Source of the DNA: Geosiphon pyriformis
Lineage: Eukaryota; Glomeromycota; Glomeromycetes; Archaeosporales; Geosiphonaceae
Reading direction: 5' to 3'
DNA length: 64,000 nt
NCBI GenBank assembly: GCA_016748015.1
Contig: JAAOMT010000480.1
Span: 498,101 to 562,100 of the forward strand
Within the stretch, counting starts at the first letter, position 1; each line of letters starts with the position of its first letter. This document shows positions 10,468 through 57,913 of this stretch, piece after piece. The notes under the pieces were generated by a model, which searched no databases, had not been told where the DNA came from, and saw nothing but the letters and a program-made list of their open reading frames with translations. A program made the position numbers and the translations under genes.

Positions 10468-13400
10468 TTATGCTTCGATCTCGGGTAAATATTCAGAATC
10501 AATTTTCTCAGAGGCGTTATAATTTGGCTGATTTTTTTTCTGGAAATGCAATACACCATGATATAAGCGAACTATTATCGTATGAAAAATAAAAACTCCA
10601 CTCGAGCAAATTGTGATTAGCGTGACTATATCATGTATAATCGTATTCTGCCAATAGTAAATCTGCATAAAATATGAAATTGGAATGATTTTAATTTTTA
10701 AGTTGGGGAATGATTAAAAATTAGAATATTGTATACATAAAAAAATCTTTTTAATTACCTTTATAATAAATTGTGGTATATCTTCAATAAATAAAGTGAC
10801 CACGCTTATAATATATATTACTAATTCGCCATGTTTAGAAAAGGTAGCTGAGAATATTTGAAGCCCAGCTATCCGAGAGGATAAAATATGAAGGATCTCA
10901 ATATTAGTACTAGCGAAGAGCGTAGAAATTGCCGCGACATGAGGATACTAAATATATAAATATAGATATATATAAGGTTAAAAAAGAACAAACTGAACTC
11001 GAAATTTAAAAAATTGCTTACATTGCGAAACCACGAATTAAACTGGTCATTATTAGAATTCTCAGAGAGAATAATATAAAAAGCACTCAAACAATTAACA
11101 ATAGTTGGTATAACTATTGTTAAAAGGCTTCATATAAGGTGTTTTAAGTTAGAGTTTTTTCATCCTTTTTCCTCTAATTTTGAAAAAAATTAAAAAATAC
11201 CTTGGGATAAAAAGTTTGGGAAGATCTTTTCCGTTTCTTATTAAAAAGACGAAGTCAAAGATAAAATCTTGGATAACTAGAATAATAGTGATTATAAACA
11301 TGTTTCTTCCCTAAATTAAATTTTTTTTTAACTTTTTAATACTTTTTATGATTTTTTAAATAATAAAGCTTTTCATCCCTTACCTGTTTATTAAGATGCC
11401 GAGCGTAAAAGTATATGGCCATAAGAATTATACCGGAACCCAATGCAATAAAGAGAGTAAATTTATACTTATCCCATAAGTCGACTATAGAAAAAGTTCA
11501 ATTATTATGAATCTTTAATATAAATCATTCTATTTTTAAAGCATAACGACCCGTTTTCTTTTACCTGTTTCTTGAAATCCATATGTGCCATCAATCCATG
11601 AAGTATAATTTTCCATGGAAAATCTTGTAAAATCTCTATTCTTAATAAGACTGTTCAAATTTTTGGCAGTGATATCAACGCTATTATCAGAATGGCTCCT
11701 TCCTGGCGAAATATTAATGCGAAGCAATATTTGTTTTGATGCTGGGTCGACTTGAAAATGTCTTTTTATATTAATCATGGAGGGATTGACCGGAATGATA
11801 TGTGCAATTTTAGTTTCAAAGTCATTAAAGAAATTTGCTGAATCATTTTTTATTGCTGCTTTAAAGGCAGGGGTCGAATCCATAGTTAATCTAATCAGAC
11901 CAGAGGTTGCTTTATTTCAAGGGTATTAAAGAAATTTATCAAGTGAGCGATTTGAATTAATTAATCAGTCATATTATTTTTTAATTAAACTAAATAACAT
12001 ACCCGAGTTATGATATTCATTACCAAGATCTAAATTAAAATTAAGAAATTAGTTATATTTTTAAATTTGAAAAATCAATTTATGCTTTCAAAAATACATA
12101 CCGACTCCAGTGTAAAAAAACCAATTTCCTTCCGAGATTCCTATAAATGGCTCATCAGAAATGGCTGCTCGAACAAAACCAATATCAATAATAACCAAGT
12201 ATGTGGTATTTGGTATGTTGAGTGTACTATCTAATAAAGGAATCGATATTGTGTTTCCATTGAGCGTTGTTTGAAAATTCCGGTCTAATCCTGAGCATGT
12301 TTGTCGTAAAATTAGTCCTATACTTGTATTTTGGTAGATTGAAATATTCTTTGTTGAGAGTAGAATTGAATCTTCATAAGTGATATTTATGTGAGTTAAC
12401 GTTGATGACAGCACAATTTCTCCTATTTTCGGTACTGTTTTCAGTATATTTGGATTTTCATATCCTTTATCAGCGTCTGCCAAATAAAAAAAAAGATTTA
12501 ATCAATTCTAAGAATCATTTAGAAGCCTAACTATCCAGCCAAAACCCTAATTTTGAACTTACCTTTTACTTTGATCCTGGAAAATTCTTTTGTAATGATA
12601 CTCCACTTTCCATCAGTTATATTACTCCTTCTAAGACCCCAAGCGATATTTTCCTCAGCAAAATAGCCGTATATGCTGGTTAAAAAATCAAGGTTCCACA
12701 TCTGAATAAAGTCTCCATTTTGATTTAATATTTCGCCGCCAATCAAGGGTTTTCCTTCAACTGTAACCGTTCGAAAAGCGACAAAACCCCCATAAAATAA
12801 GGGTAGGAAGTAGAAATTAACATATTCACTCTTGATGTCGATTTCTAATTGTCGGATAGCAGTAATGGTACCCTGAGAACCAAAACTGATACCCGTCACA
12901 GTGGAATTTTCTTGCTGACTTGTTTCTTTTAATTGTTCAATTAAAAAAAGACACCCATTTCCTGAGCCATCCCAAACATTACCGCAACCAGTGTTGATTA
13001 TGTTAATAGATGTAAGAGGAGTTTGATATAAAATAATTAGTTTCGATGATATTGGCCTTGACTTTGAGAGAAATGATACGTATGAGATCCAGCGTGGGAT
13101 TGTGAAGTTAATAGTTTGATTGAGGTTATCAATTTCATTTTTAATTAAAATGACACAAGCGAAGCCACCACTCGAGATACTGATGGGAAAAAAACTTTTT
13201 AGGGTTTCTAGATTTGTCTGCGAATAAAAAATGCCTTGACCATCATCGTAGACTCGACCGTATATATCCCTTTTATCGTGAGCAAAAATTATCTAATATT
13301 AAATTGATAAAAATTTCTTTATGAATTTTATTCAAATTGAACTTACGGATAACTAAATCTTTTCCAAGCTAAAGTTCCGTTGAGAAATTGATAGGCTCGT

Positions 13401-13992
13401 AAAATTCCATCTTCTTTAAATAATCCATTCACTACTTTAGATCCAGCTATTATGCCATCACCAAGACTAAAAGTACTGCAATCAAAGAATAAAATATTTA
13501 ATTAATATGAAGAAAAAATAAACTTCCAACCATTTACCTTTTAAAATTTCCCCAAAAATCTAAAACTTGACCTTTTAGTTCATAAATTCCTTCAGAGGAT
13601 GGTTTCTCGAAAATATTCAAATAATATATAATAATAAACTCTTTTGTCAAGGCTGAAACATTTATTGCTGCTTTGTTACAATAAGTGTATTCATTAAAAG
13701 GAAAATCAAAATCAAATGCACGAACTGTGCTGTTTTTAAAAATAATTCTTAAATGCATTTTCGGTTTGTCAGGAAAAATACATTCATAAGAGGCATTTCC
13801 TTTGACCATTCTGATTAAAATTGGTCCATAATCATTTTCGTAACTTTCCCAGATTTTGAGATCGTTTTCTTCTTCCGTATATTCAAGACTTTGGTATACT
13901 TCGGCATATGCAAACAAAAGGGAGCTCAATAAAAGTGAATGAAGTATAATATAACATTGAAATTTAGAAATTCGAAATCTCCAAAGCATCAT
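10468..13992 (-). CDS. Large membrane protein with secreted ectodomain and C-terminal TM bundle (912 aa, 11 exons)
   Basis: My exon model on the minus strand is 13538-13992, 13347-13475, 12563-13269, 12102-12476, 12003-12029, 11565-11909, 11384-11484, 11201-11310, 11022-11127, 10759-10947 and 10468-10662. It totals 2739 nt (912 codons plus TAA). Every intron is GT-AG and every phase is consistent. The protein starts with a signal peptide (hydrophobic core IILHSLLLSSLLFAYA). A Ser/Thr/Asn-rich ectodomain of about 680 residues follows, with many N-glycosylation sequons. About six hydrophobic segments lie in the last five exons, including one carrying LFIEDIPQF. The tail is polar (ends LPEIEA). 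An E-D-[IL]-P-Q motif inside a membrane segment is known in XK-related and other multipass families, but I cannot assign a family. A surface sensor or receptor-like role is inference. Exon 5 is only 27 nt. Confidence 0.85.
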
Positions 13993-15095
13993 GGCAAAAT
14001 CTTCTACTGAGACGAGTGGCTGTAAAAAACATCGCTTGGCATTTTGTTAACTACAATTTTTAATTGATCAGCTTTTGTGCGGGGTTACACTACCGTTTGG
14101 CCGGAATAGCGAAATTTTTAAAGTTTGCAAATTGTTTTATGAATTTGATTTTCATTAACTGATTTTTCATGTCAATAGGTCGAGAAAACTAAATATTTGA
14201 TTCCTAAATAGGATGTTATTATAGTACACAATGGTTTTTTAGCAATATTAAATAAAGCCTTGAGTTCGAAAACGCAGGTACCAAACAAAATTGAAATCTA
14301 GACAAATTATCTAATATTGCCTGCATACTTTGTAAGACAGTTATTATAATTTAAGATTTTGATTATTATATGATTATATTTTATCGGTCCAAATATAAAT
14401 TTTAATAAATTCAATACCGCATTAAGTGGTCTTTTATTTGTAAATGGGAGAAAAATCAAAGCCTTTGTAAAAAAAAAAAGAAAAAGGTATGGACATTGTA
14501 AACAAATATTTTAATTAAAATTTTAATTTAAAAAGTTTGTCTTAATGTTAATTAGTATAGCATATCAAATTTAAAGAGATTAATAAGTTTTCAATTGAAT
14601 ATATGTCAATAATATATTTCAATTGAATCTAATAAATTTATTTCTCATTATAATGATAATTACCGAATTTCATTTAAAATAACATTTATAATTTATACTT
14701 CAAGTTGATTCTTGATAATAAAAATTTTGTTGTAGCATTTTCTTTAACAAGTTTAATGCTAGAGATAATTCATTAAACCTTTGGGTAAAAATTATGGCAT
14801 TATATATAAAAGCAAGTCAAAATAAATAATCCTGCTTTAATCCTAATATATAATTAAAATTTAAAAAAAAAGTTATTTATATGTTTCAGTTAGGAATAGT
14901 CCTAATGGCGTTTACCTTTGTGTTTGTTATTGAGTTTTAGATGACTATGTATTAATTTGGAGGTTTTTTTTAAAACGTTTTAAATTATATAAGCCAAAAG
15001 TGCTGAATGAAGGCTTCTAAAATTTTAATTTGGTGATATATCATGACGATGATGGTCAAGTGAAGACAATGTTCAATACAAATACTCTACAACCT
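13993..15095. other. Intergenic region
   Basis: The upstream region of the membrane-protein gene lies at 14.0-14.2 kb. I see no gene here. It is AT-rich apart from a short GC-richer stretch near 14,080-14,115. Confidence 0.55.
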
Positions 15096-15227
15096 TTACA
15101 TAATCGAGCATTGACCATTGCCGTTACCATCAGCTGGGTCACTAGTCGGTCCTTTGATAGAGCCGTTGGCAAGAAGGATTATTGATAGTGGATTGAAAGT
15201 GGATTGATTGTTTGTTGTTGGTTGCAT
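15096..15227 (-). CDS. 43-aa CaaX-box peptide, candidate lipopeptide pheromone precursor
   Basis: A complete intronless ORF on the minus strand. ATG at 15225-15227 sits in a good context (GAAAAAATG) and TAA at 15096-15098 ends it. It begins MQPTTNNQSTFNP, has a hydrophobic patch (LSIILLA) and a Gly/Asn/Asp tail, and ends DPADGNGNGQCSIM. CSIM is a CaaX motif whose X=Met favours farnesylation, followed by proteolysis and carboxymethylation. This size and layout match fungal a-factor-type mating pheromone precursors (short, no signal peptide, processed N-terminal extension, CaaX end). GC is about 42% by hand count against roughly 20-25% around it. A TATA-like element lies about 97 bases upstream. 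Alternatives are another small prenylated protein, the last exon of a prenylated protein, or chance. Family membership is inferred from architecture only. Confidence 0.6.
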   Translation of the reverse strand: MQPTTNNQSTFNPLSIILLANGSIKGPTSDPADGNGNGQCSIM

Positions 15228-15323
15228 TTTTTCAAATTATTTGATTTGCTTTCAAAAGTTATTGGTTTGTGTGCTTTTTTTCCCTAATTATTTTTATTAG
15301 ATAGATTGCGAAGACACGTCCAG

Positions 15324-15330
15324 TTTTATA
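15324..15330 (-). promoter_or_regulatory. TATA-like element upstream of CaaX peptide ORF
   Basis: TATAAAA on the minus strand, about 97 bases upstream of the ATG at 15227. The motif is weakly informative in AT-rich DNA, but it is followed by a GC-richer segment typical of a leader. Confidence 0.35.
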
Positions 15331-16028
15331 AAAAAAAAATCATAGTTATCTCCTTAAAAACCTATAATTTCAAATAATAACTTATTGTCCCGTTGTATCA
15401 TGATTTTAGCAAACATATTGTATTGTTAACATTCAAAAATATTGTTATTTAATTATCACTTATATTAAAAATCAGGCATTAAAGGATTTTTTTATGTTCA
15501 TGTGAGTTAGACATGCATGAACTCATGATTTAATAAAAAGATTTTCATTAAAACATGACACTGTTTTACAGAGTTTCAGGATTATGCTAAAAGCGTTTCC
15601 TAAATTTCCCTTCTCCAATTTCTAATGATAATCATTCTATGGTTTCAATAAGTTTGTAAAAAATAGTATATATCCAATGCGATATCTAAATATATTGTTC
15701 TTTATTTATTTAAATCCAAGAATTAATCGGAATAAGATCTAAAAAGTACCTTTGACGCTAAAGAAAGGTATTTTTTTTTAGTTTAAGTGGTATTTATTTT
15801 GTTAGAATAATTTTTTTTATTTCAAAAGAAAAAATATATTTCCTAATATGCAATAATTGGAGACTTTTTATAAGATTTATCTAATGAAATAAAATAATAG
15901 AGTTTTCAAAAAACAAAATCATTTTTAGCTTTTAAAATTTTTTAATCGGCTTTCGTTTTTTAGAGCCAAGGTAAATCATCTTTAATGAATGCTAAATATT
16001 AATTTCCGCTAGCTTACTTTAAGTAACT

Positions 16029-16488
16029 ATGAAAACCGGTTTAACTATCTTTGCTTTAGTTAAAAGGAAAATATTTTTTTGTTAAGCCTACTATCCCATA
16101 TTTAATTTATACCCTTACCTTTTATAATTTGATTTTTCATTTCTTATTATTATTAAATAAATATTATGCATATCTTGCAGGGAATTACATGTACAAATGT
16201 CCTGAAAAGGATATGATGAATTTTGTAACACCATGTGTAAACGGCGCCATGGTCCCGAGTAAAACCGGTTTATTAAGTAATTATTTTGATTATGACAAAA
16301 TTTCATGTATTCCCTCCCTTATCAATTTACACTACATATCTTTAAGGACTTAAAAAGGTTTTAAATGGTAAACAAACGTTAGTTTATTAATTTTTTGGCA
16401 GGAACCAACTTGGATAAATTTTTTGACCCAAGAACTTGGGATAAAGATGCTTATGATGATGATGATCATCATAAGCATCTTCTTCATT

Positions 16489-16556
<68 letters not shown>

Positions 16557-16580
16557 CATCATCATCATGGAATGAATTAA
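16029..16580 (+). CDS. Small histidine-run protein (108 aa, three exons)
   Basis: Exons 16029-16080, 16181-16276 and 16402-16580 give 327 nt in frame, with GTTAAG/TTGCAG and GTAATT/GGCAG intron borders. Exon 2 encodes a Cys-containing segment (NYMYKCPEKDMMNFVTPCVN). Exon 3 encodes KFFDPRTWDKDAYDDDD, a mixed His segment, about 21 consecutive His, a Pro, four His and GMN. The His run is written by a CAT microsatellite, so its length is probably polymorphic. A His run beside an Asp cluster suggests divalent metal binding, which is inference. The first exon (MKTGLTIFALVKRKIFF) is the least certain part; a different 5' exon is possible. Exons 2 and 3 are well supported by composition and splice sites. 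Confidence 0.6.

Positions 16581-17148: not shown

Positions 17149-17150
<2 letters not shown>
16581..17150. other. Intergenic AT-rich DNA
   Basis: No gene or repeat recognised between the His-run gene and the poly(A) tract. Confidence 0.5.

Positions 17151-17211
<61 letters not shown>
17151..17211. repeat. Poly(A) tract of about 60 bases
   Basis: An uninterrupted A run of about 60 bases. It could be a slippage-expanded homopolymer or the tail of an old retroposed sequence. The upstream sequence has no recognisable retroposon body. Confidence 0.85.

Positions 17212-17213
<2 letters not shown>

Positions 17214-17438: not shown

Positions 17439-17470
<32 letters not shown>
17439..17470. repeat. 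TA dinucleotide microsatellite
   Basis: About 15 TA units in non-coding sequence. Confidence 0.9.
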
Positions 17471-18262: not shown

Positions 18263-18417
18263 TTTAATGTTCAAAATTTTTATTTTTTATTAAGTTATTT
18301 TATCCAGGTTTAAAATGTACGCAAAAAACTATAAAATAAGTCTTCAAATTTCATCTCTTTTTTGAAGACACAAATTCACTTTCTTCCACTGTCACTTTCC
18401 CCGATTTCTGAAGCATA

Positions 18418-19417
18418 ATGTTTTCTAAACGACATCATGTTACTACCGCTTGTCTAAACTGCCGCGAAAGAAAAGCGAAATGCACCGGCAAACCACATTG
18501 TCAACGTTGCTTTAAAAATAAACTCCAATGCATATTTGTTCAGCCATGCAAAAAAAGGGGTCCCCCGAAAGTCAAGCATGGCAATGAATTTATTGAATCC
18601 GCACGTACTAGGGCTCAAAGAATTGCTCGAAGCTTAACCTTGCCTAGCCTTTCAGAAGTGTCTTGGTCAAGTCAAAATGAATTTTTTATGGATTCAAGGG
18701 GATCATATTTTTCAAAGTTAAACACAAGCGATCAAATCCCTCGGTTCCCCCCGCTTTCGAATGATATTCTTTCATCCGCTGAGACAAAGAATCCTGTGCT
18801 ACGTAATAATGAATTTCAGTCACGTGCTTCATCTATAGAAAGTTTGAATAAATTTAATGGTAAGAAAAATTTTTAAAAAAGAATTTGTTGTTTATAAAAA
18901 CTCTTAATAATTTTTGCATGTTTCTTCTTATGCAGAAAGTTTACGCTATCAAGATTCATTTGATATTTTCCTGGATTCTGATTTTGATAATCACACCCTC
19001 TCCAACCAACAAAGTGAATTTTCTCAGTCCTTCCCACATTCAGTATATTTACCAATACCGACCAAAATTCTCGACTCAAAACATGTTGAGCTTCAATCAA
19101 CAGCGAAATATCTTAGCAATGACACAGGGCTCAGACACGATTGCAGTGTTAATTTTGACACTTTTTCATCCCCTTCACAATCTCCTGTTTCCCCCGTAGA
19201 TCATTGCTTACAAAGCCCAAGTAATGCACAAATTTCTCGTCCCCTGTCCCAATCTCCGCAATCAAAATTTAATTGGAATTTACCAAGTTTTGGACAAAAT
19301 TACAAGAAAGTCGAAGGGCAACAACAAAATTGGCCTTGCTGTGGCCCTAACGAATATGAAAACCTGTCTAATACCTTTGTGTTTGCACCAATATGGCGAC
19401 CAAAGGAGAAATTTTAA
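18418..19417 (+). CDS. Zn2Cys6 (fungal-type) transcription factor, 307 aa
   Basis: Two exons, 18418-18859 and 18936-19417 (924 nt), are joined by a 76-bp GTAAGA/ATGCAG intron in phase 1. Residues 12-38 carry the fungal binuclear zinc cluster with spacing C-X2-C-X6-C-X5-C-X2-C-X6-C (starts CLNCRERKAKC). A basic linker with KKRGPPK follows. Such proteins bind paired CGG-type sites in the nucleus. The remaining 250 residues are Ser/Pro/Gln/Asn-rich and look like a disordered regulatory region. No middle homology (fungal_trans) domain is visible, so this is shorter than typical family members. The ATG at 18418 directly precedes the cluster. Target genes are unknown. Confidence 0.9.
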
Positions 19418-40102: not shown

Positions 40103-40828
40103 TGTTACGGTTGAAACACATAGTTTTTATTAATTATTACATGTATTAGCCAATGATGTCATATAATTAGCCACCCTATTTTTAGATAGTGATCATTGAC
40201 CTGATCAATGATCTGACTGTTAACCTGATCATTGACCTGATCATTGACCTAATCAATAACCTGATCATTGACCTAATCATTGATCTGATCATTGACCTGA
40301 TCATTGACTACTTTAGATAGCTATATAAGCGATGATTCCCTTAGCTGTAGAAAGATATAATCAAAGTAATAAAATAAACAATATCAATTACTTCCTCTCA
40401 TAATCGCTTATTCCCTTTTCTTTACCTTCAAGTATCTACTTGTTGGCATTCACATACCTTATCTTTTTCTCTTCTTGATTTGTATTTGTTAGAATTAGCC
40501 TGAGAAGCAATTGGCTTGCTCTTGTAATTCATTGAATAAAGAAACAATTGAAAAGTACAACGATACCTGTTATTGATTCTAAAAATCACTGAGTTGAGGC
40601 ATAGAATAATAGCAGCAGTGTTATCTTGTTGACAATCATGGACTATTCCTCTACCTTTAGATTTAAGAAAAGATTAGTGACTGTGATTTTTATGAGACTG
40701 ATCACACACATTGAATTCCTATTTATTCAATTCGCTCTCTTATTGTAATTCCTTCTTTGTTTATTTCCATCACCATACAATACTGTTCTCCTTTGCTATC
40801 TATTAGCTTGTTACTCCAACTTGTAACA
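40103..40828 (+). repeat. 5' LTR of element D (726 bp)
   Basis: It begins TGTTACGGTTGAA and ends CAACTTGTAACA. It is 108 bp longer than the 3' LTR because of a 12-bp palindromic tandem repeat at 40,191-40,308. Confidence 0.93.
40191..40308 (+). repeat. 12-bp tandem repeat in the D 5' LTR
   Basis: About ten units of CTGATCATTGAC with C/T variants. Each unit contains the palindrome TGATCA. The 3' LTR has a single degenerate unit at the same place, so the array expanded or contracted after or during insertion. Confidence 0.9.
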
Positions 40829-40833
40829 TAAAA

Positions 40834-40851
40834 GTGATGCTCCCTGTGAGG
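40834..40851 (+). other. Element D primer-binding-site candidate
   Basis: GTGATGCTCCCTGTGAGG lies 5 bases after the LTR. It matches the equivalent position in A (TTTGATGCTCTTTGTAAG) and C (TTGGTGTTCTCTGTGAG). All four elements therefore seem to use one primer RNA. I could not name the tRNA. Confidence 0.5.
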
Positions 40852-40880
40852 TTGTCAAAATTCACTTATTCCCTCATTGT

Positions 40881-42434
40881 ATGGGTGATTACTCATATCT
40901 GCCACAGCAATCAGAAGAACACTTTGCAGCACACAACAGAAACAACCAAAGTTTTATTGAACTTAATCCTCTGCCCTCCTGCTTGATCTGCTTCCCCCTT
41001 GAAGAACAATCCAGTAGACAATTCCAAGACTTTTGGAACTGGTTTCTGAACGAGCATTCAGCTGAAATCTACAACACTTATACAACCTATTACTTTGACC
41101 AAGCTTATTTTGAAAACAACTTTGAAGAAAGAAACAATAGTATCAATCAGCTCTTATATTCTGCAACCTTTGAACAACAGCTTCCTGATTTCAAATATCT
41201 GAATCATCAAATCCACATTTGGATTGCTGCCCATTAAGCAACTGAAACTCCCTTTGAAACAGAAGAAGAAAGCTACCAAACTGCCCCTGTTTTTGATCTT
41301 TTATCAAGTAAATCAGACTTGTCTACACAAACAGTTACCCCTGAACTAATGGCTAATGACCCCATGCAAGCAAACATTTTGGCTGCCCTCCAAGGTATAC
41401 AAACTGCTCTAGGGCAAAGAAACAACATCCCAATACCATTATTTAGAGGTGATGCACAAGATTCAATTGAATGGTTAAATAACTTTGAAAGAGCCGCTAC
41501 AGCCAATCAATATGATGATAAGTACAAATTCCAAATTGTCGGTGGCTACCTTCAAGGATCCCCTGCTACCTGGTTCTCACAAGAAACAGATGTCAATGCC
41601 CAGCAAAGAATTGTTAGATGAACATCAGCAAATGTGGGAGAAATCAACACTTCTTTCACTACCCGGTTTGAAAACAAGTTTAGAACCCCAATATTAATAT
41701 CAAAATGGCATATGGAATTGGAAAGAAGAACCCAAGATCCCGGTGAAGTTGTAACCGAATACGCCAAAGCAATCAAAAAGTTAATCAAACGAGTAGACAC
41801 TGAAAGAAATTGGACAAAAGAGCAGAAAATTCACTCCTTCACAAAAAGATTGAGAACTGATCTATCGTATGCTCTTTGGCTCCTCCTGGTCCTGAAAGAT
41901 AATCTCACCATGGATATGGCTATTGAATTAGCACAAAGAATTGAAGACAACCAAAGGATGCACTTGGGATCCATATTACCAGTTTTTGCTCCTGTTCCTG
42001 TCATGGCTTCTGCCCCTCAAATGGCTGCTACTTCTTTTGCCACTTACACTCAAGATCCAAATGAACAGTTAATAGACAGACTCACAGCAAATCTTGCTTG
42101 GTTATTAGAACCCTTAGCCCAAGCAGTCAGAGAAAATCAGCAACCACAAAGACTCAGATTTGAACCACGTTTCAATCAGCCTCAGCAACTACCTTATCAA
42201 AGACAACAAAATCATGGCCCACCTGTATGCTATCGCTGTGGATTAACTGGACACTTTTCAAGAGATTGCAACAATCCTCCACTGCTTCCACCAGTCCCCA
42301 GAAACAATGATGCTCAAAACAACAGGATCAACAACAACAATGTGTCCAACCAAAGACCCAATCATGCCAACATCAATTTCTTTGGAGAGAATCCCCTAGT
42401 TAAAGCCACTGTTTATCAGCCTTTAAACTGGTAG
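40881..42434 (+). pseudogene. Element D gag with two premature stops
   Basis: One frame from ATG 40,881 to TAG 42,434, broken only by TAA at 41,235 and TGA at 41,619. Both are a single C-to-T change away from CAA and CGA. The capsid region (IPIPLFRGDAQDSIEWLNNF, then TWF, RFENKF and EYAKAI) is of the retrotransposon gag type. It is followed by a Gln-rich linker and a CCHC zinc knuckle at 42,228-42,269 (CYRCGLTGHFSRDC) that binds the RNA genome. The capsid forms the virus-like particle. It ends at the frameshift site. Confidence 0.9.
42422..42428 (+). other. -1 ribosomal frameshift heptamer at gag-pol junction
   Basis: T TTA AAC in the gag frame is a canonical X XXY YYZ slippery site. The zero-frame stop TAG follows after one codon (42,432-42,434). 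The pol frame is exactly -1 and open from CTG 42,428 onward (VGAPPKSESATQPEEN). A short imperfect hairpin around GGTGCACC may follow, but I could not evaluate a pseudoknot. Confidence 0.75.
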
Positions 42435-45400
42435 GTGCACCTCCAAAGAGTGAGAGTGCAACCCAACCAGAAGAAAACCTCTTTTACGCTTTTAACTTAA
42501 CTGATAATGACCATGACATGGATGAATTAGCAATCAACCTCTCTGAATCCACAAGAAAGAAGAAGAAAGCCAAAGTTGATTTCGTTCTAGACTCCAATAA
42601 AGCTTCTACATCAACTGCTGACAACAATAAGCTCCCAAAAGCCAAAGTTTTCAAGAATTCTTCAAAGTTGAAACCCCCAGAAATAGTACAAAAATCCGGT
42701 CCCTATTCTGTTGTCAAAGACTTTATGGAAACCCCAGCACATATAACCTTTGGCCAATTGATGACCCATCCACAATTCAGAAAAGATTTTCGCAAATCCC
42801 TGATTCCAAAGAAAAAGACACCCAAAACCAACAAACACCCTTGCCAAGCTGGACTTGCTGACAATAGCAATATCATTCCTCTAATTTGTAAAGCCCAAGT
42901 GGCTGGCTACTTCATTAATTTGATCCTAAACAGTGGATCATCTGTTAGTGTTATTGCCAAACACTTTCTTAAAGCAATTGACAGAAAAATTAATGAACCA
43001 TCTACATGACCAATGACCAATGTGCATGGTGATAAGAAAAAAAAGCTTGGCATAGCCAAAGCTATTCCTGTCTGTATCAATGGCATCAGCATTGAAACTG
43101 ATATAGAAGTGTCTAAAGTAAAAGAATACACCATCATTGTTGGCAATAAATGGCTTAAGAAAGCAAAGGCTTTGCTTGATTATGAACTCTGTGAACTAAT
43201 CATCAGATGTGGTGAGAAACCCATTGTGGTTAAGTATCACCATTGGACAACTCCCCCAGTACCCAAGCAGAGCCCAGAAGAAAATGAATTAGATAAATCA
43301 GATGATAAAGAAAGTGAGGAAGAAGAAAAACAAGAAGAACAAAAAAAAACTACTGAACTCGCCTATACCATCTTTACTAGCAATGACAAACCACTGGATA
43401 ATGTTAAGGCAGATAAAGAAGGAATCATTGTCAATGGCAAGCTGATCTGCTGGCCTTATTATGACATGCTCAGAAGAACCTTTGACAGAAAGCCAGGCAA
43501 GAAAGCCAAATACAGTTATTGGTGGCATGGTCCTTATGCCTGGTGCTGGTGCGACAAACTATTGTATTCTCCTAGCGATGAATGCATGTCCTGCCTGATC
43601 TATTACAAAGATTGGGAACCAATCAGCTTGATACCCCAAGAGGAAATAAAAAAAGTCCAAAAGTCCTTTGAAAATGAACCACCTGAAATCCAATCATTGG
43701 TTGTAGAACAAAGAGAACTCTCTCCAAAAGAAAAAAAAGTAGACATTGAAAACCTGCTGGCTAAAAACAGCCCAGTTATCTCAAAAGAAAGTGAACCTCC
43801 TGGACGTACACATGTGATACAACACACCATCATCACCAGAGAAACTTGCCCCATCCATTTGAAGCCCTATCAATCTAACTGGCACAATGATGAGTTTATC
43901 AAAAAAGAAATAACCCGAATGAAAACCCTTGGATTCATACAGGAAACCAAGAGTGAATGGGCATTCTCAGTTGTAGTGGTATCCAAGAAAGGAGGAACCC
44001 TACACTTTTGTGTTGACTATCGCCAATTAAATGCTATTACTGAAAGAGACATGTACCCACTTCTCAAGATTGATGCAATGCTAAACCAATTCCATGGTGC
44101 CGCTTTCTTCTCAACCATTGACTTAACTGCTGGATTCTGAGAAGTAAAGATGGATCCAGAAAGCAGAAAGAAAACTGCTTTCATCACCAAGTATGGTACC
44201 TACGAGTTCACAGTCATGCTTTTTGGTCTCACAAATGCTCCTTCCACCTTTCAATGCTTAATGAACAAAGTATTTGAATCAGTAAAAGAAAACTTTGTTC
44301 TAGTCTACTTGGACGACATAATGGTATACTCAAAAACCTGGGATGAACACCTTGAACATTTGCAAAAGGTTTTTGATCTCCTTAGAAATGCTGGTCTCAA
44401 GATCAATCCAATCAAATCATTCTTTAGGCATCAATCCACCCAGTTTCTTGGCCATCTTATTACAAAAGATGGAATCTTCTCTGATCCAGCCAAAATTGAA
44501 AAAGTTCAAAACATTAGACAACCAATGAATGTTCATGAACTATGCTCTTTTCTTGGTTTGGCCTTTTATTATCGCAAGTTTGTCAAAGATTTCTCCAAAA
44601 TTGCTGCTCCTCTCAATCAGCTACTTAGGAAAAACATCAATTATCACTGGAGCACTCATCAACAAAAAGCATTTGAAATTCTGAAGGAAAAACTGGTTAC
44701 AGAACCCATCTTCATGCAACCTAATTTGGATCAACCTTTTATCCTCCACACTGATGCATCTGGCTATAGACTTGGTGCTGTTCTTTCCCAGAAAAATGAA
44801 AATGACAGGGAACATGCCATAGTATATGCCAGTAGAACTCTCACACCAGCAGAAAAAAACTATTCAGTTACTGAGCAAGAATGCTTAGCAGTAGTTTGGG
44901 CTACCAGCTACTGGGACAAATATCTTAAGGGTGTGAAATTTTTGGTGGTAACAGATTATCAAGCTATGGTTTGGCTACGCAACAAAAAAAACCTGGAACA
45001 TAAATAGATAACTTGCTGAATACTCCACTTGGACAAATTCGACTATGACATTCAACACCACAAAGGAGCTAATCATCAAAACGCCGATGCTCTCTCCAGA
45101 CTTACCATCCAGTGATAGTAAAACCCTCTCAAACCAAACCAACTTAATTATTTGTAACTCCCCTACAAACAAACACGATAATGGACTTGGACAACTACTC
45201 TGCTTTAATGAAATTTTTGGGTAAAGGACAATATCCGCCAGACTATACTTGACAGCAAAGAGAACATTTGTGCAAACAATCAAATTTCTATTTGATTCAC
45301 CAGAACCAGTTATATAAAAGAAATAAAAAAGATCCTGACCACCCCCAGAGAGTCATTAGATTTGAAGAAAAAGAAATTGTGATCTACAATATGCACACTG

Positions 45401-46488
45401 ATTCATTAGTTGGACACTTTGGAAAAACAAAAACAATTCAGAAAACTTTAGCTCACTATTATTGGCCTACCTTGGGAAAAGACATTGCTGAATACATCAA
45501 AACCTGTGATACTTGCCAAAGAAGAGGAAAACCCAATCGCAAGGAAGATATCCATCCAATCTCTGTTGGTCAACCATTTGATAGAATTGGTATAGATGTT
45601 GTTGGACCTTTAACAGTAACTCCTGATGGCAACAGATACATTATCACAGCTACTAACTATCTTACAAAATGGGTAGAAGCAAAAGCCACCCCAGATCAAA
45701 CAGCAGTTTCAATTGCCAATTTCATTTATGAAGATATTATCTGTCACCACGGCTGTCCCAAAAAACTTTTATCTGATAGAGGAAGAGCTTTTCTCAGTAC
45801 ACTGGTTGAAGAACTTTGCAGAAAAATGGGAATACGTCATAAACTCTCTTCCCTTTATCACCCCCAAACAAATAGCCTAGTGGAACATTTCAATAGAACA
45901 CTATGTGAAACCCTAGCCAAAACCAGTGAAGAAACCAACCTATGGGACAAAGTATTGTCTTCAGCCTTGTTTGTTTACAGAACTGTGAATCATGACATAA
46001 CAAGTTATGAACCCTTTTATCTACTCTATGGACGAATGGCAACTCTACCAATAGAAACGGATATAGAAACAATACTTTTTGAAGAAATAACAATAGGAGA
46101 TTACAAGAACATTTTGCAAAGAAGACTTGGTACCATTCTTGACTCATTAGTAGAAGCATAGATAATTGCCTTTGAAAAGATAAAACAGGTTCAAGAGAAG
46201 CTCAAAAAGAAAAAGACCTATAAAACACTTTCCTTAAGTGTTGGTGACTTAGTTTTGGAATACCATTCAGACAGAGACAATGTCTATGGTAATAAATTCT
46301 CTAGCTGGTGGAAAGGACCCTTTATAGTCAACAAAGTTTTGAACAATGGTTTTTATATCTTACAAGATCAATATAGAACAATATTCAGTGATCGTCCTGT
46401 TCATGGCACACGACTCAAGAAATATCACAAACAACCTGATTGGTTATCTGTTGTGGTAATACCGACCCAAATAATCAGCAAAAATTAG
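42428..46488 (+). pseudogene. Element D pol: protease, reverse transcriptase, RNase H, integrase
   Basis: Order: linker, protease with NSG at 42,929-42,937 (family consensus DSG, so catalytic Asp is Asn), and a Trp/Cys-rich segment (YWWHGPYAWCWCDK, 43,520-43,560). Next come reverse transcriptase with intact YLDD at 44,306-44,317 and RNase H with TDAS and VTDYQ. Integrase follows from 45,268 with an HHCC zinc domain (CDTCQRRG), catalytic Asp, Asp and Glu, and a GPF-type C-terminal motif near 46,310. Stops at 43,007, 44,138, 45,005 and 46,159, plus an indel between about 45,110 and 45,190, break it. It would copy gag-pol RNA to DNA and insert it, but this copy cannot act on its own. Confidence 0.9.
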
Positions 46489-46535
46489 ATATAAATAAAT
46501 GCACCATTCCCAAAACAGAGGTATCTTCAATCGAC

Positions 46536-47192
46536 ATGAACAATTATTTCCTGGATTAAAACATTCAAAATGTTTTCTATACTCTCTATAAGTACTGAAT
46601 CAAGAACTATCCAAATGCTACTCTGACTATCGGAAAACAAACCACTATAACAGACAACAGTGGAACTCACACTGTTATTAGACCAAAGAAAACAACTACC
46701 AGAAGAGAAAGAATTGGTAGCAAAATGGATAAATACCTGCTGGAAAGCATAATAGCAGCGATACTTTCATCTTCCAGCACAATTGGAAAAACAATACAAG
46801 AAATCTTGCCCATAGACAAAAACTTGTCATATGGAAGACAACTAGAACTCTATGGTCGTCTTGGTGAAATCATAGAAGACATGAAGCTCATGAAGAAAAC
46901 AACTTCAGAGATACAAGTGGAAATTTTGGGCATTATATGATTGAATGTCCCAAGAGTTTTGACCATTGCAAGAAGAGCCAGAACTCTTATACAAAGATTT
47001 GGTCTCTTGGATACAAAGCTTATTTCATCTCAAGTACTATATACTCTATCCACAAAAGACTTCAACAAACTAGTTAGTTTTGAGTTAGACAAAACCCTTC
47101 ACATAGACTATCCCATAAATAGTTTGATTTTGCCGGAGCTCAATCTCTTTGGAGAGGATGATGTTATGGTTGAAACACATAGTTTTTATTAA
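46536..47192 (+). pseudogene. Element D third ORF after integrase, function unknown
   Basis: A separate frame starts at ATG 46,536 and runs about 218 codons to a TAA inside the 3' LTR. It has stops at 46,563 (TAA), 46,596 (TGA) and 46,938 (TGA). Readable parts include NYPNATLTIGKQTTITDN, a Lys/Arg patch (PKKTTTRRERIGSK) and a helical region (DKYLLESIIAAIL). No signal peptide or clear transmembrane anchor is seen, so an envelope role is not supported. Its last 31 bases overlap the polypurine tract and LTR. Confidence 0.6.
47151..47161 (+). other. Element D polypurine tract
   Basis: GGAGAGGATGA directly precedes the 3' LTR start TGTTATGG at 47,162. Confidence 0.7.
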
Positions 47193-56890: not shown

Positions 56891-57277
56891 AATAACAGAA
56901 ACAACAAAGCAATAGCTAGTGATAACGAAACAATTGAAAGCAATCCTGTAAAACCAAAAGAATGTATAAAAGCAAATAGTTGTAGAAGTGAGAAAAGACA
57001 AACAGATAGATATGAACTTTTAGACAAAAATTAAAATATCTATACCCCTTCATCCTTTATTATCTTCCCTCTTTCATCTCCTGAAATAAACCAATTATTA
57101 AAGAAATCAGAATCACAAATTTATGTTCTCGAATTTCATAGAATTTACATGAATTAACCCTTGTCTCATATCTCTATTCTAGGACAGATGCTCTTAGCAT
57201 AACTGCCTTGAACTTATTAATGATTTGGACCAATCGCTCTTGATCATGGCAATTGATGATACTAATTTATCTTTTCT

Positions 57278-57278
<1 letters not shown>

Positions 57279-57341
<63 letters not shown>

Positions 57342-57365
57342 TTTTTTTTTTTTTTTTTTTTTTTT

Positions 57366-57430
<65 letters not shown>

Positions 57431-57444
57431 TTTTTTTTTTGTTT

Positions 57445-57509
<65 letters not shown>

Positions 57510-57510
57510 C
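57279..57510 (+). repeat. Poly(T) tract of about 230 bases inside the C LTR
   Basis: An almost pure T run with six isolated G. The A LTR has only a short T run at the matching place (about 23,280-23,330). The poly-Phe and poly-Lys frames here are artefacts. Its assembled length may be unreliable. Confidence 0.9.
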
Positions 57511-57913
57511 TTTTTCTGTCTTATTTTTGTGAAGTGGCAACATAGTAAAATTGACTGTCTGGAAATAGACTTTATAATAGCCTGGTAAAAGAGAGAAGCT
57601 TCTCCTAAGTTTTGGATATTAACTTTATCTTGTTAGCTTACCAGAAGGGTAAAAAGACAATGCCAGACCCTAATGACTGTGCTCGTTAGCTCGGAGAAGA
57701 GAGCTCACATTTACAAAAAACATTGCAATCAATGAAAGACAAACTCTGTGCCTTATAACCAAAGAACTCGACGGGTAAATTCACATCCAGGAATAGACCT
57801 TCAGAGACTAATAATCAAGACTAAGCCAACAAAATTACATGGAAGATGTGTCATCAATAATTGAGAGCACCAAACATTATCATTTCCCATACCCATCAAG
57901 TTTACCCGTAACA

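What the first reader, a model, noticed from the sequence alone, without database searches (positions are those of the whole stretch)
15096..15227. A 43-codon CaaX peptide gene resembling a fungal lipopeptide mating pheromone precursor
A complete minus-strand ORF below usual annotation size ends in CSIM, a farnesylation-type CaaX box. It has no signal peptide, a Thr/Asn-rich N-terminus and a Gly/Asn-rich pre-CaaX region (DPADGNGNGQCSIM). GC is about 42% in a 20-25% background, with a good start context and an upstream TATAAAA. This is the architecture of a-factor-type precursors, which are hard to annotate and of special interest in fungi thought to be asexual. Architecture is seen; the pheromone role is inference.
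Basis: partly seen in the sequence, partly recalled or inferred. Interest (0 to 1): 0.87.

Follow-up and report, generated by a model that had tools for sequence, protein, structure and literature searches.

The report
Lipopeptide mating-pheromone-like gene family
A tiny gene in the symbiotic fungus Geosiphon pyriformis, present in over thirty copies that encode nearly the same protein, looks like the missing partner of the fungus's single mating-pheromone receptor, in a group long thought to be asexual.

Summary
The ORF is real; the window is Geosiphon pyriformis (G000:C356). A CaaX ORF alone is not beyond chance (3 in the window, 1.95 per random window). A family settles it: 34 full-length genomic matches, 33 of them open 43-codon ORFs ending CSIM-stop. 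Across 31 of these, 32 of 43 third codon positions vary but only 7 of 86 first and second positions; dN/dS 0.015. Array copies with drifted flanks encode identical proteins in 92 of 95 pairs. The genome has one Ste3-type receptor gene, matches to CaaX-processing families, and a palindromic AACAATG element 170-285 bp upstream of 19 copies. Arbuscular mycorrhizal fungi were reported to have STE3 and STE6 but no identified pheromone gene (PMC3834313, passages). Best explanation: lipopeptide pheromone precursors, probably the Ste3 ligand. Expression, farnesylation, receptor binding and sex are unshown. The window copy is the most divergent intact copy, with 8 substitutions from the majority protein (7 at positions 18-37) and no ACAATG site: a variant ligand or a weakly regulated copy. 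No relatives outside Geosiphon were found with these tools.

The parts
15096..15227 (-). 43-codon CaaX peptide precursor gene (complete ORF with stop)
   Evidence: translation; 32 other open copies with the same frame, length and CSIM end
15177..15227 (-). Codons 1-17, near-invariant N-terminal leader (MQPTTNNQS.FNPLSII)
   Evidence: one substitution (S10T) in the window copy relative to the majority protein
15111..15176 (-). Codons 18-39, Gly/Asn/Asp-rich segment presumed to contain the secreted peptide; carries 7 of the 8 substitutions of the window copy
   Evidence: difference list; the processing site is inferred, not shown
15099..15110 (-). CaaX box CSIM (farnesyl-type), codons 40-43
   Evidence: invariant in 33 of 33 open copies while Cys, Ser and Ile codons vary synonymously
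15228..15252 (-). Conserved 5' leader just upstream of the ATG
   Evidence: gapped alignments of the window copy to other copies begin between -19 and -42
15324..15330 (-). TATAAAA, at -103
   Evidence: TATAAAA at -147 to -103 in 32 of 34 copies; background 67 of 612 pieces of equal length
15422..15446 (-). Two AACAAT sites (15422-15427, 15441-15446), possibly degenerate counterparts of the AACAATG palindrome upstream of other copies
   Evidence: the window copy has no ACAATG in -600..-45; the correspondence is inference

Best explanation
It is a member of an amplified family of genes for a farnesylated (a-factor-type) lipopeptide signal, most likely the ligand of the genome's single Ste3-type receptor. 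Proposed working: HMG-box factors binding AACAATG palindromes switch the genes on; a 43-residue cytosolic precursor without a signal peptide is farnesylated at Cys40, loses SIM, is carboxymethylated, is cut within roughly residues 18-30, leaves by a Ste6-type ABC transporter and acts on Ste3 of neighbouring hyphae. Shown here: the gene family, its CaaX and coding constraint, the receptor gene, matches to processing-enzyme families, the promoter element. Inferred: prenylation, cleavage site, export, receptor binding, HMG control and mating role. The window copy encodes a variant core and may be a second ligand form or a relaxing copy.
For: 34 full-length genomic matches, 33 open, all 33 ending CSIM-stop. 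dN/dS 0.015 over 31 copies; variable columns 5, 2 and 32 of 43 at first, second and third codon positions. In 95 array-type pairs (at least 400 aligned flank bases, flank divergence over 0.12, C216:57705 left out), pS is 0.239, pN 0.0005, and 92 encode identical protein. Window copy against 32 others: dN/dS 0.15; Fisher test on rounded counts p=3e-5. One STE3 gene: 239 bits over the whole PF02076 model; relatives at 52% in Ambispora gerdemannii and 46% in Diversispora eburnea. ICMT, Prenyltrans and Ste24-type matches. ACAATG upstream of nine copies on nine contigs: 25 against 2.6 expected, 0 of 200 shuffles; top hexamer, and over 34 copies 15.6 per kb at -300..-201 against 0.62 per kb in the window. 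Of 34 CATTGTT-N9-11-AACAATG palindromes in the genome (5 for the backward-read control), 19 lie 170-285 bp upstream of family ATGs. Halary et al. 2013 (PMC3834313, passages): one STE3 and a STE6, no pheromone peptide gene found. Cryptococcus species examined carry multiple identical pheromone genes (PMC9296135, passages); red-yeast pheromone genes of different strains showed only synonymous changes in one example (PMC3236058, passages).
Against: No expression or biochemical evidence. No relative outside Geosiphon in about 5.8 billion proteins, GTDB contigs or IMG/VR contigs, although short unannotated ORFs of other fungi would be invisible to these. The charged pair expected 10-15 residues from the end of basidiomycete precursors (PMC5100862, passages) is absent. 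Eight NCBI gene models (P0002-P0009) do not end at the CaaX. The window copy and 4 of the other 33 lack ACAATG in -600..-45, and STE3's own upstream has it only at -948 and -938. No peptide copy lies on the STE3 contig C303. Other candidate signal peptides exist in AM fungi: Rhizophagus has many KEX2-processed secreted peptides with alpha-pheromone-like signatures (PMC6339444, passages). Over 30 copies is far more than the pheromone gene numbers I know of (recall). STE6 was not sought in this genome.
Confidence: 0.74

Rival explanations
1. A farnesylated signalling lipopeptide that is not a mating pheromone, for example a hyphal self-recognition or fusion signal, or a signal in the Nostoc symbiosis, made in quantity from many gene copies.
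For: Over 30 copies encoding nearly one protein suggest high dosage; sex is unproven in this lineage; 24 of 33 copies encode one identical form, as a self-signal would.
Against: A Ste3-type receptor exists, and the literature passages I saw assign it no ligand in AM fungi; the promoter element resembles HMG-box sites (binding preference recalled), a class tied to pheromone response in other fungi (PMC7490403, passage).
Confidence: 0.15
2. An intracellular membrane-anchored small protein (farnesylated but not exported), such as a regulator of GTPases or G proteins.
For: CaaX proteins are mostly intracellular (general knowledge); no export test possible.
Against: No Pfam family is matched at E up to 1, the G-protein gamma family included; a Gly/Asp/Asn-rich core and large arrays are unusual for such proteins (judgement).
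Confidence: 0.07
3. First exon of larger proteins, as eight NCBI models suggest, with the conserved ATGTRA end serving as a splice donor.
For: Gene models P0002-P0009 are 50-76 aa and continue past, or leave before, CSIM; ATGTRA contains GTRA in all 33 open copies. Whether RNA evidence backs these models is unknown to me.
Against: The models leave the shared sequence at several different points; two of them read the same downstream flank in different frames (CENYRRHF versus CEKLSSGF), matching a one-base indel seen in the flank (GTGAAAATT versus GTGAAAAATT), so the tail is not held in frame; the window copy aligns to others no further than +129 to +164 in the main alignment.
Confidence: 0.03
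4. A chance ORF, or cargo of a duplicated repeat unit without protein function.
For: CaaX-ending ORFs of this size occur about twice per random window; array copies, and some copies on different contigs (C160/C394, C401/C402, C254/C380), share hundreds to thousands of flanking bases.
Against: Nearly synonymous-only drift, dN/dS 0.015, invariant CaaX and stop; flanks drift while the protein does not.
Confidence: 0.01

Closest known systems
Saccharomyces cerevisiae a-factor (mature YIIKGVFWDPAC-farnesyl-OMe)
   Same: Short precursor, CaaX end, single peptide at the C-terminus (general knowledge). The window peptide shares I-K-G-x-x-x-D-P-A in register with the mature a-factor: 6 identities, reached by 7 of 100,000 shuffles; the majority peptide 5, reached by 341 of 100,000 (a-factor sequence as printed in PMC7035247, passage). 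The yeast precursors' MQP start is recalled, not retrieved (one search found nothing).
   Different: Hydrophilic Gly/Asp/Asn-rich core and an extra stretch before Cys; CSIM rather than CVIA (recalled). The resemblance may be coincidence: it is one hand-picked comparison, and from recall a-factors of other yeasts do not keep it.
Basidiomycete lipopeptide pheromone precursors (Ste3 ligands of PR loci)
   Same: 40-100 aa precursor with CaaX and Ste3-type receptor (PMC5100862, passages); multiple identical copies as in Cryptococcus (PMC9296135, passages).
   Different: No charged pair (ER, ED, EH) 10-15 residues from the end; no copy on the receptor's contig; many more copies.
Putative pheromone-sensing pathway of Rhizophagus and Glomus (Halary et al. 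2013)
   Same: One Ste3 receptor and, there, a Ste6 transporter (PMC3834313, passages).
   Different: No pheromone gene was found there; this family supplies a candidate, so far in Geosiphon only.

Membership tests
Fungal lipopeptide (a-factor-type) mating pheromone precursor | Short precursor (about 35-100 aa) | tested here: met
   43 aa in all 33 open copies
Fungal lipopeptide (a-factor-type) mating pheromone precursor | C-terminal CaaX box kept by selection | tested here: met
   CSIM in 33 of 33 with synonymous codon variation at C, S and I
Fungal lipopeptide (a-factor-type) mating pheromone precursor | No signal peptide | tested here: inconclusive
   By inspection the first 13 residues have no hydrophobic core; no signal-peptide program was run
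Fungal lipopeptide (a-factor-type) mating pheromone precursor | Ste3-type receptor encoded in the genome | tested here: met
   One PF02076 gene, 239 bits over the full model; pairing with this peptide not shown
Fungal lipopeptide (a-factor-type) mating pheromone precursor | CaaX-processing enzymes present | tested here: met
   ICMT, Prenyltrans (beta-subunit family, three loci) and Ste24-type matches over cut-off; these families also serve other proteins and farnesyl- was not told from geranylgeranyl-transferase, so weak evidence
Fungal lipopeptide (a-factor-type) mating pheromone precursor | Ste6-type exporter | not tested
   Reported for other AM fungi (PMC3834313, passages); not sought in this genome
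Fungal lipopeptide (a-factor-type) mating pheromone precursor | Farnesylated, secreted, activates Ste3, needed for mating | not testable with these tools
   Needs experiments
Basidiomycete PR-locus pheromone subtype | Charged residue pair 10-15 residues upstream of the C-terminus | tested here: not met
   Charged residues of the window and majority forms are K25 and Asp only; no ER, ED or EH (definition)
Basidiomycete PR-locus pheromone subtype | Pheromone genes linked to the receptor gene | tested here: not met
   STE3 on C303 (364 kb), no peptide match on C303; linkage beyond the contig is unknown
G-protein gamma or other known small CaaX protein family | Match to a Pfam family | tested here: not met
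   0 families at E up to 1 for P0001 and P0002
Transposable or repeat element | Element-encoded protein, or sequence shared well beyond the ORF | tested here: inconclusive
   Window copy: main alignments end by -42 and +164. But arrays and some pairs on different contigs share kilobase flanks. L012 (9.5 kb) has one other frame of 70 aa or more, 72 aa; L009 (10 kb) has six, one of them holding the peptide; the rest were not identified

The most novel reading that the evidence does not exclude
A working lipopeptide-Ste3 mating or partner-recognition system exists outside Dikarya, in Glomeromycotina: more than thirty dispersed and arrayed genes supply one pheromone under HMG-box control (at least 129 HMG-box matches in this genome, three within 14 kb of STE3), and the window copy encodes a second, diverged ligand form.
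Probability: 0.4. Interest if true: 0.93.

Novelty: new variant of a known kind. Interest (0 to 1): 0.86.

Why it matters
Whether Glomeromycotina, ancient and presumed asexual plant symbionts, mate is a long-standing question. A Ste3 receptor and Ste6 transporter were reported without a ligand (PMC3834313, passages), and co-inoculation work saw no upregulation of pheromone genes (PMC7490403, passages). A defined 43-aa precursor family gives a peptide that can be synthesised and tested, and a search template (short CaaX ORF, AACAATG palindrome, TATA at about -110) for other species. The strong constraint on the peptide implies that it has been in use.

Tried and rejected
Chance ORF: rejected on codon pattern, although the CaaX ORF alone was not significant. 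Exon of a larger gene: disfavoured. Known Pfam family: none. PDB relatives of the peptide: none at E up to 10. Relatives in GTDB and IMG/VR contigs: 22 and 5 stretches matched a pattern, none confirmed. STE2 (alpha-factor receptor): no match, but the control genomes were silent too, so absence is not shown. Other words tested together with ACAATG were not clearly enriched: TGAAACA 1 against 1.4 expected, ATGAAAC 0 against 1.1, ACAAAG 4 against 3.1, AACAAAG 2 against 1.3, TTCTTTGT 2 against 0.5 (20 of 200 shuffles reach it), TATAAAA 11 against 6.9 (15 of 200). STE3's own upstream region has ACAATG only at -948 and -938, so shared control of ligand and receptor is not supported. My first flank test (ungapped) overstated flank divergence; the gapped tests correct it. 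One search used a wrongly written pattern (one codon short) and found nothing; one search is the corrected one. The undetermined residue that one search printed for C216:59934 was my script's placeholder for one base between two fetched stretches; that copy is read whole from L058. Literature: ten searches and passages of nine papers; none that I saw names a pheromone gene of Glomeromycotina, but most papers were seen only as listings, the library lacks most subscription journals, and the Geosiphon genome paper was seen only as a reference.

Full report
What was claimed and what is there. The ORF at 15227-15096 (minus) is as described: 43 codons ending CSIM-stop, GC 0.42, TATAAAA at -103. By itself this is not remarkable: 3 of 265 ORFs of 25-80 aa in the window end in a CaaX-like motif, 1 with a farnesyl-type last residue; 20 dinucleotide-random windows have 1.95 and 0.25 on average.

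Identity of the genome. The window is G000:C356:498101-562100 of a 124.7 Mb, 406-contig assembly. The length 120102 given for P0005 and P0006 matches no contig that I saw.

A gene family. A protein search of the own genome returned 34 matches; a DNA search returned 34 full-length or nearly full-length matches plus a 63-base fragment on C393. Read base by base, 33 are open 43-codon frames ending CSIM and a stop, TAA in 31 and TGA in 2; one (C216:39720) is degenerate. They lie on 12 contigs: eleven on C380, five on C241, five open plus the degenerate one on C216, three on C283, two on C318, and one each on C254, C160, C394, C353, C402, C401 and C356 (the window). A degenerate pattern for the N-terminus matched 34 places, 0 with the backward control, one of them (C353:140155) not otherwise matched. 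A pattern for the C-terminus matched 33 places, 0 in the control. Caveats on copy number: C318:387079 has a Tn5 mosaic-end sequence 64 bp upstream (its identity recalled) and may be an assembly chimera, and C241:314768 and C380:949174 are 98% identical over 2.9 kb, near contig ends, and may be alleles or one locus.

Selection. The 33 frames are 29 distinct DNA sequences but 8 distinct proteins; 24 encode one identical protein. Leaving out the window copy and C216:57705, 31 copies give pS 0.380, pN 0.0077, dN/dS 0.015, with 5, 2 and 32 of 43 first, second and third positions variable; with all 33 the figures are 9, 11 and 33, pS 0.387 and pN 0.0170. The window copy against the 32 others averages 13.5 synonymous and 9.5 nonsynonymous differences, dN/dS 0.15 (Fisher test on rounded counts p=3e-5): still constrained, but less so. 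It has the longest branch of the tree. Counts over pairs are not independent, and gene conversion among array copies was not modelled.

Flanks. Ungapped comparison suggested that identity falls to about 0.3 outside the ORF, but this overstated the case. Gapped alignment shows that array copies, and some pairs on different contigs (C160/C394, C401/C402, C254/C380), share flanks for hundreds to thousands of bases, while the window copy shares with the others mainly about -42 to +164, with a few short extra matches. The pairs with shared flanks are the better test: in 95 pairs with at least 400 aligned flank bases and flank divergence over 0.12 (C216:57705 left out), pS is 0.239, pN 0.0005, and 92 of 95 encode identical proteins (468 ORF-spanning alignments, 33 copies making 528 pairs). 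In L012, 9.5 kb with four copies, one other frame of 70 aa or more exists (72 aa); L009, 10 kb, has six, one of them holding the peptide.

Promoter. TATAAAA stands at -147 to -103 in 32 of 34 copies (background 67 of 612 pieces). ACAATG, one of seven words I tested, occurs 25 times upstream of nine copies on nine contigs against 2.6 expected, 0 of 200 shuffles reaching it; it is the top hexamer against window background and, over 34 copies, peaks at 15.6 per kb in -300..-201 against 0.62 per kb in the window. Two sites often face each other as CATTGTTA-spacer-TAACAATG. The genome has 34 CATTGTT-N9-11-AACAATG palindromes (5 for the backward-read control); 19 lie 170-285 bp upstream of a family ATG (one of these the degenerate copy), including 16 of the 19 with 24-base length. 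Because copies share ancestry, shuffles exaggerate significance. A check on this: among 149 pairs of these 19 copies on different contigs, 82 have their palindromes inside a common alignment and 67 do not; anchored on the palindrome, identity is 0.67 in the spacer (107 pairs of equal length), 0.52 and 0.44 in the adjoining 20 bases and 0.28 and 0.35 at 40-60 bases (the arms are identical by the choice of copies). So the element outlasts its surroundings, though part of the signal is shared descent. AACAATG is, from recall, the preferred core of SOX/MATA-type HMG boxes; HMG factors Prf1, Mat2 and Ste11 act in pheromone response in other fungi (PMC7490403, passage). The genome shows at least 129 HMG-box matches at E up to 0.01 (150 of 153 candidates scored). 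Five of 34 copies, the window copy included, have no ACAATG in -600..-45; the window copy keeps AACAAT at -219 and -200.

Receptor and enzymes. PF02076 finds one STE3 gene, C303:334886-335808; its spliced first 322 residues match the whole model at 239 bits, are identical to that part of the 526-aa protein G9A89_010645, and have relatives at 52% in Ambispora gerdemannii and 46% in Diversispora eburnea. ICMT, Prenyltrans and Ste24-type families give matches over cut-off, as any fungus should. Three HMG-box matches lie 6-14 kb from STE3; 1.1% of the genome is within 6 kb of a listed HMG box and 2.2% within 14 kb. STE6 was not sought here.

Function. An amplified, near-invariant, CaaX-ending small precursor with no known family, in a genome with a Ste3 receptor, fits a lipopeptide pheromone. 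Halary et al. (PMC3834313, passages) found one STE3 and a STE6 in Rhizophagus and Glomus but no pheromone gene, and named divergence and short length as possible reasons. Cryptococcus species examined carry multiple identical pheromone copies, thought to raise output (PMC9296135, passages). Against: R. irregularis has KEX2-processed secreted peptides with alpha-pheromone-like signatures (PMC6339444, passages), so other peptides could be mating signals in the group. The core of the window peptide shares IKGxxxDPA with yeast a-factor (6 identities, 7 of 100,000 shuffles; majority form 5 identities, 341 of 100,000). I do not lean on this, since it is one hand-picked comparison.

Limits. Nothing shows transcription, farnesylation, export or receptor activation. 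Searches found the family only in Geosiphon, with tools that see annotated proteins, prokaryote genomes and viral contigs. Eight NCBI models do not end at the CaaX; I think them wrong, because they leave the shared sequence at different points and two read a homologous flank in different frames, but RNA-seq would decide. The basidiomycete charged-pair feature is not met (definition), so I do not file it in that subtype; it looks like an a-factor-type precursor, and membership stays unproven until function is tested.

Noticed in passing
G000:C303:334886-348967 (L027, L028 for STE3): The single STE3 gene has three HMG-box matches 6-14 kb downstream on the same contig, a possible MAT-like neighbourhood; 2.2% of the genome lies within 14 kb of a listed HMG box.
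   Followed up: partly
C318:387079 copy (L051): A Tn5 mosaic-end (library adapter-like, recalled) sequence sits 64 bp upstream of the ATG, suggesting an assembly chimera.
   Followed up: partly
15 palindromes away from the family, e.g. C406:158493 and C406:167553: CATTGTT-N9-11-AACAATG palindromes not upstream of peptide genes, 12 of 15 with 25-base length; they may mark a repeat or co-regulated genes.
   Followed up: no
   Followed up: no
   Followed up: no
window 18412-18876 (+): Open frame with a Zn2Cys6 transcription-factor domain (PF00172), on the right of the peptide gene.
   Followed up: partly
window 11536-14046 (-): Four adjacent long open stretches, perhaps exons of one or more genes, with no Pfam match.
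   Followed up: partly
window 40827-46940 (+): LTR-retrotransposon-like stretch with zinc knuckle, reverse transcriptase, RNase H and integrase domains in separate frames; similar-looking frames at 58-64 kb were not scanned.
   Followed up: partly
window 16470-16570, 17149-17212, 17440-17470, 57190-57620: Simple repeats: CAT run, poly(A), AT run, and a long A- or T-rich tract.
   Followed up: no
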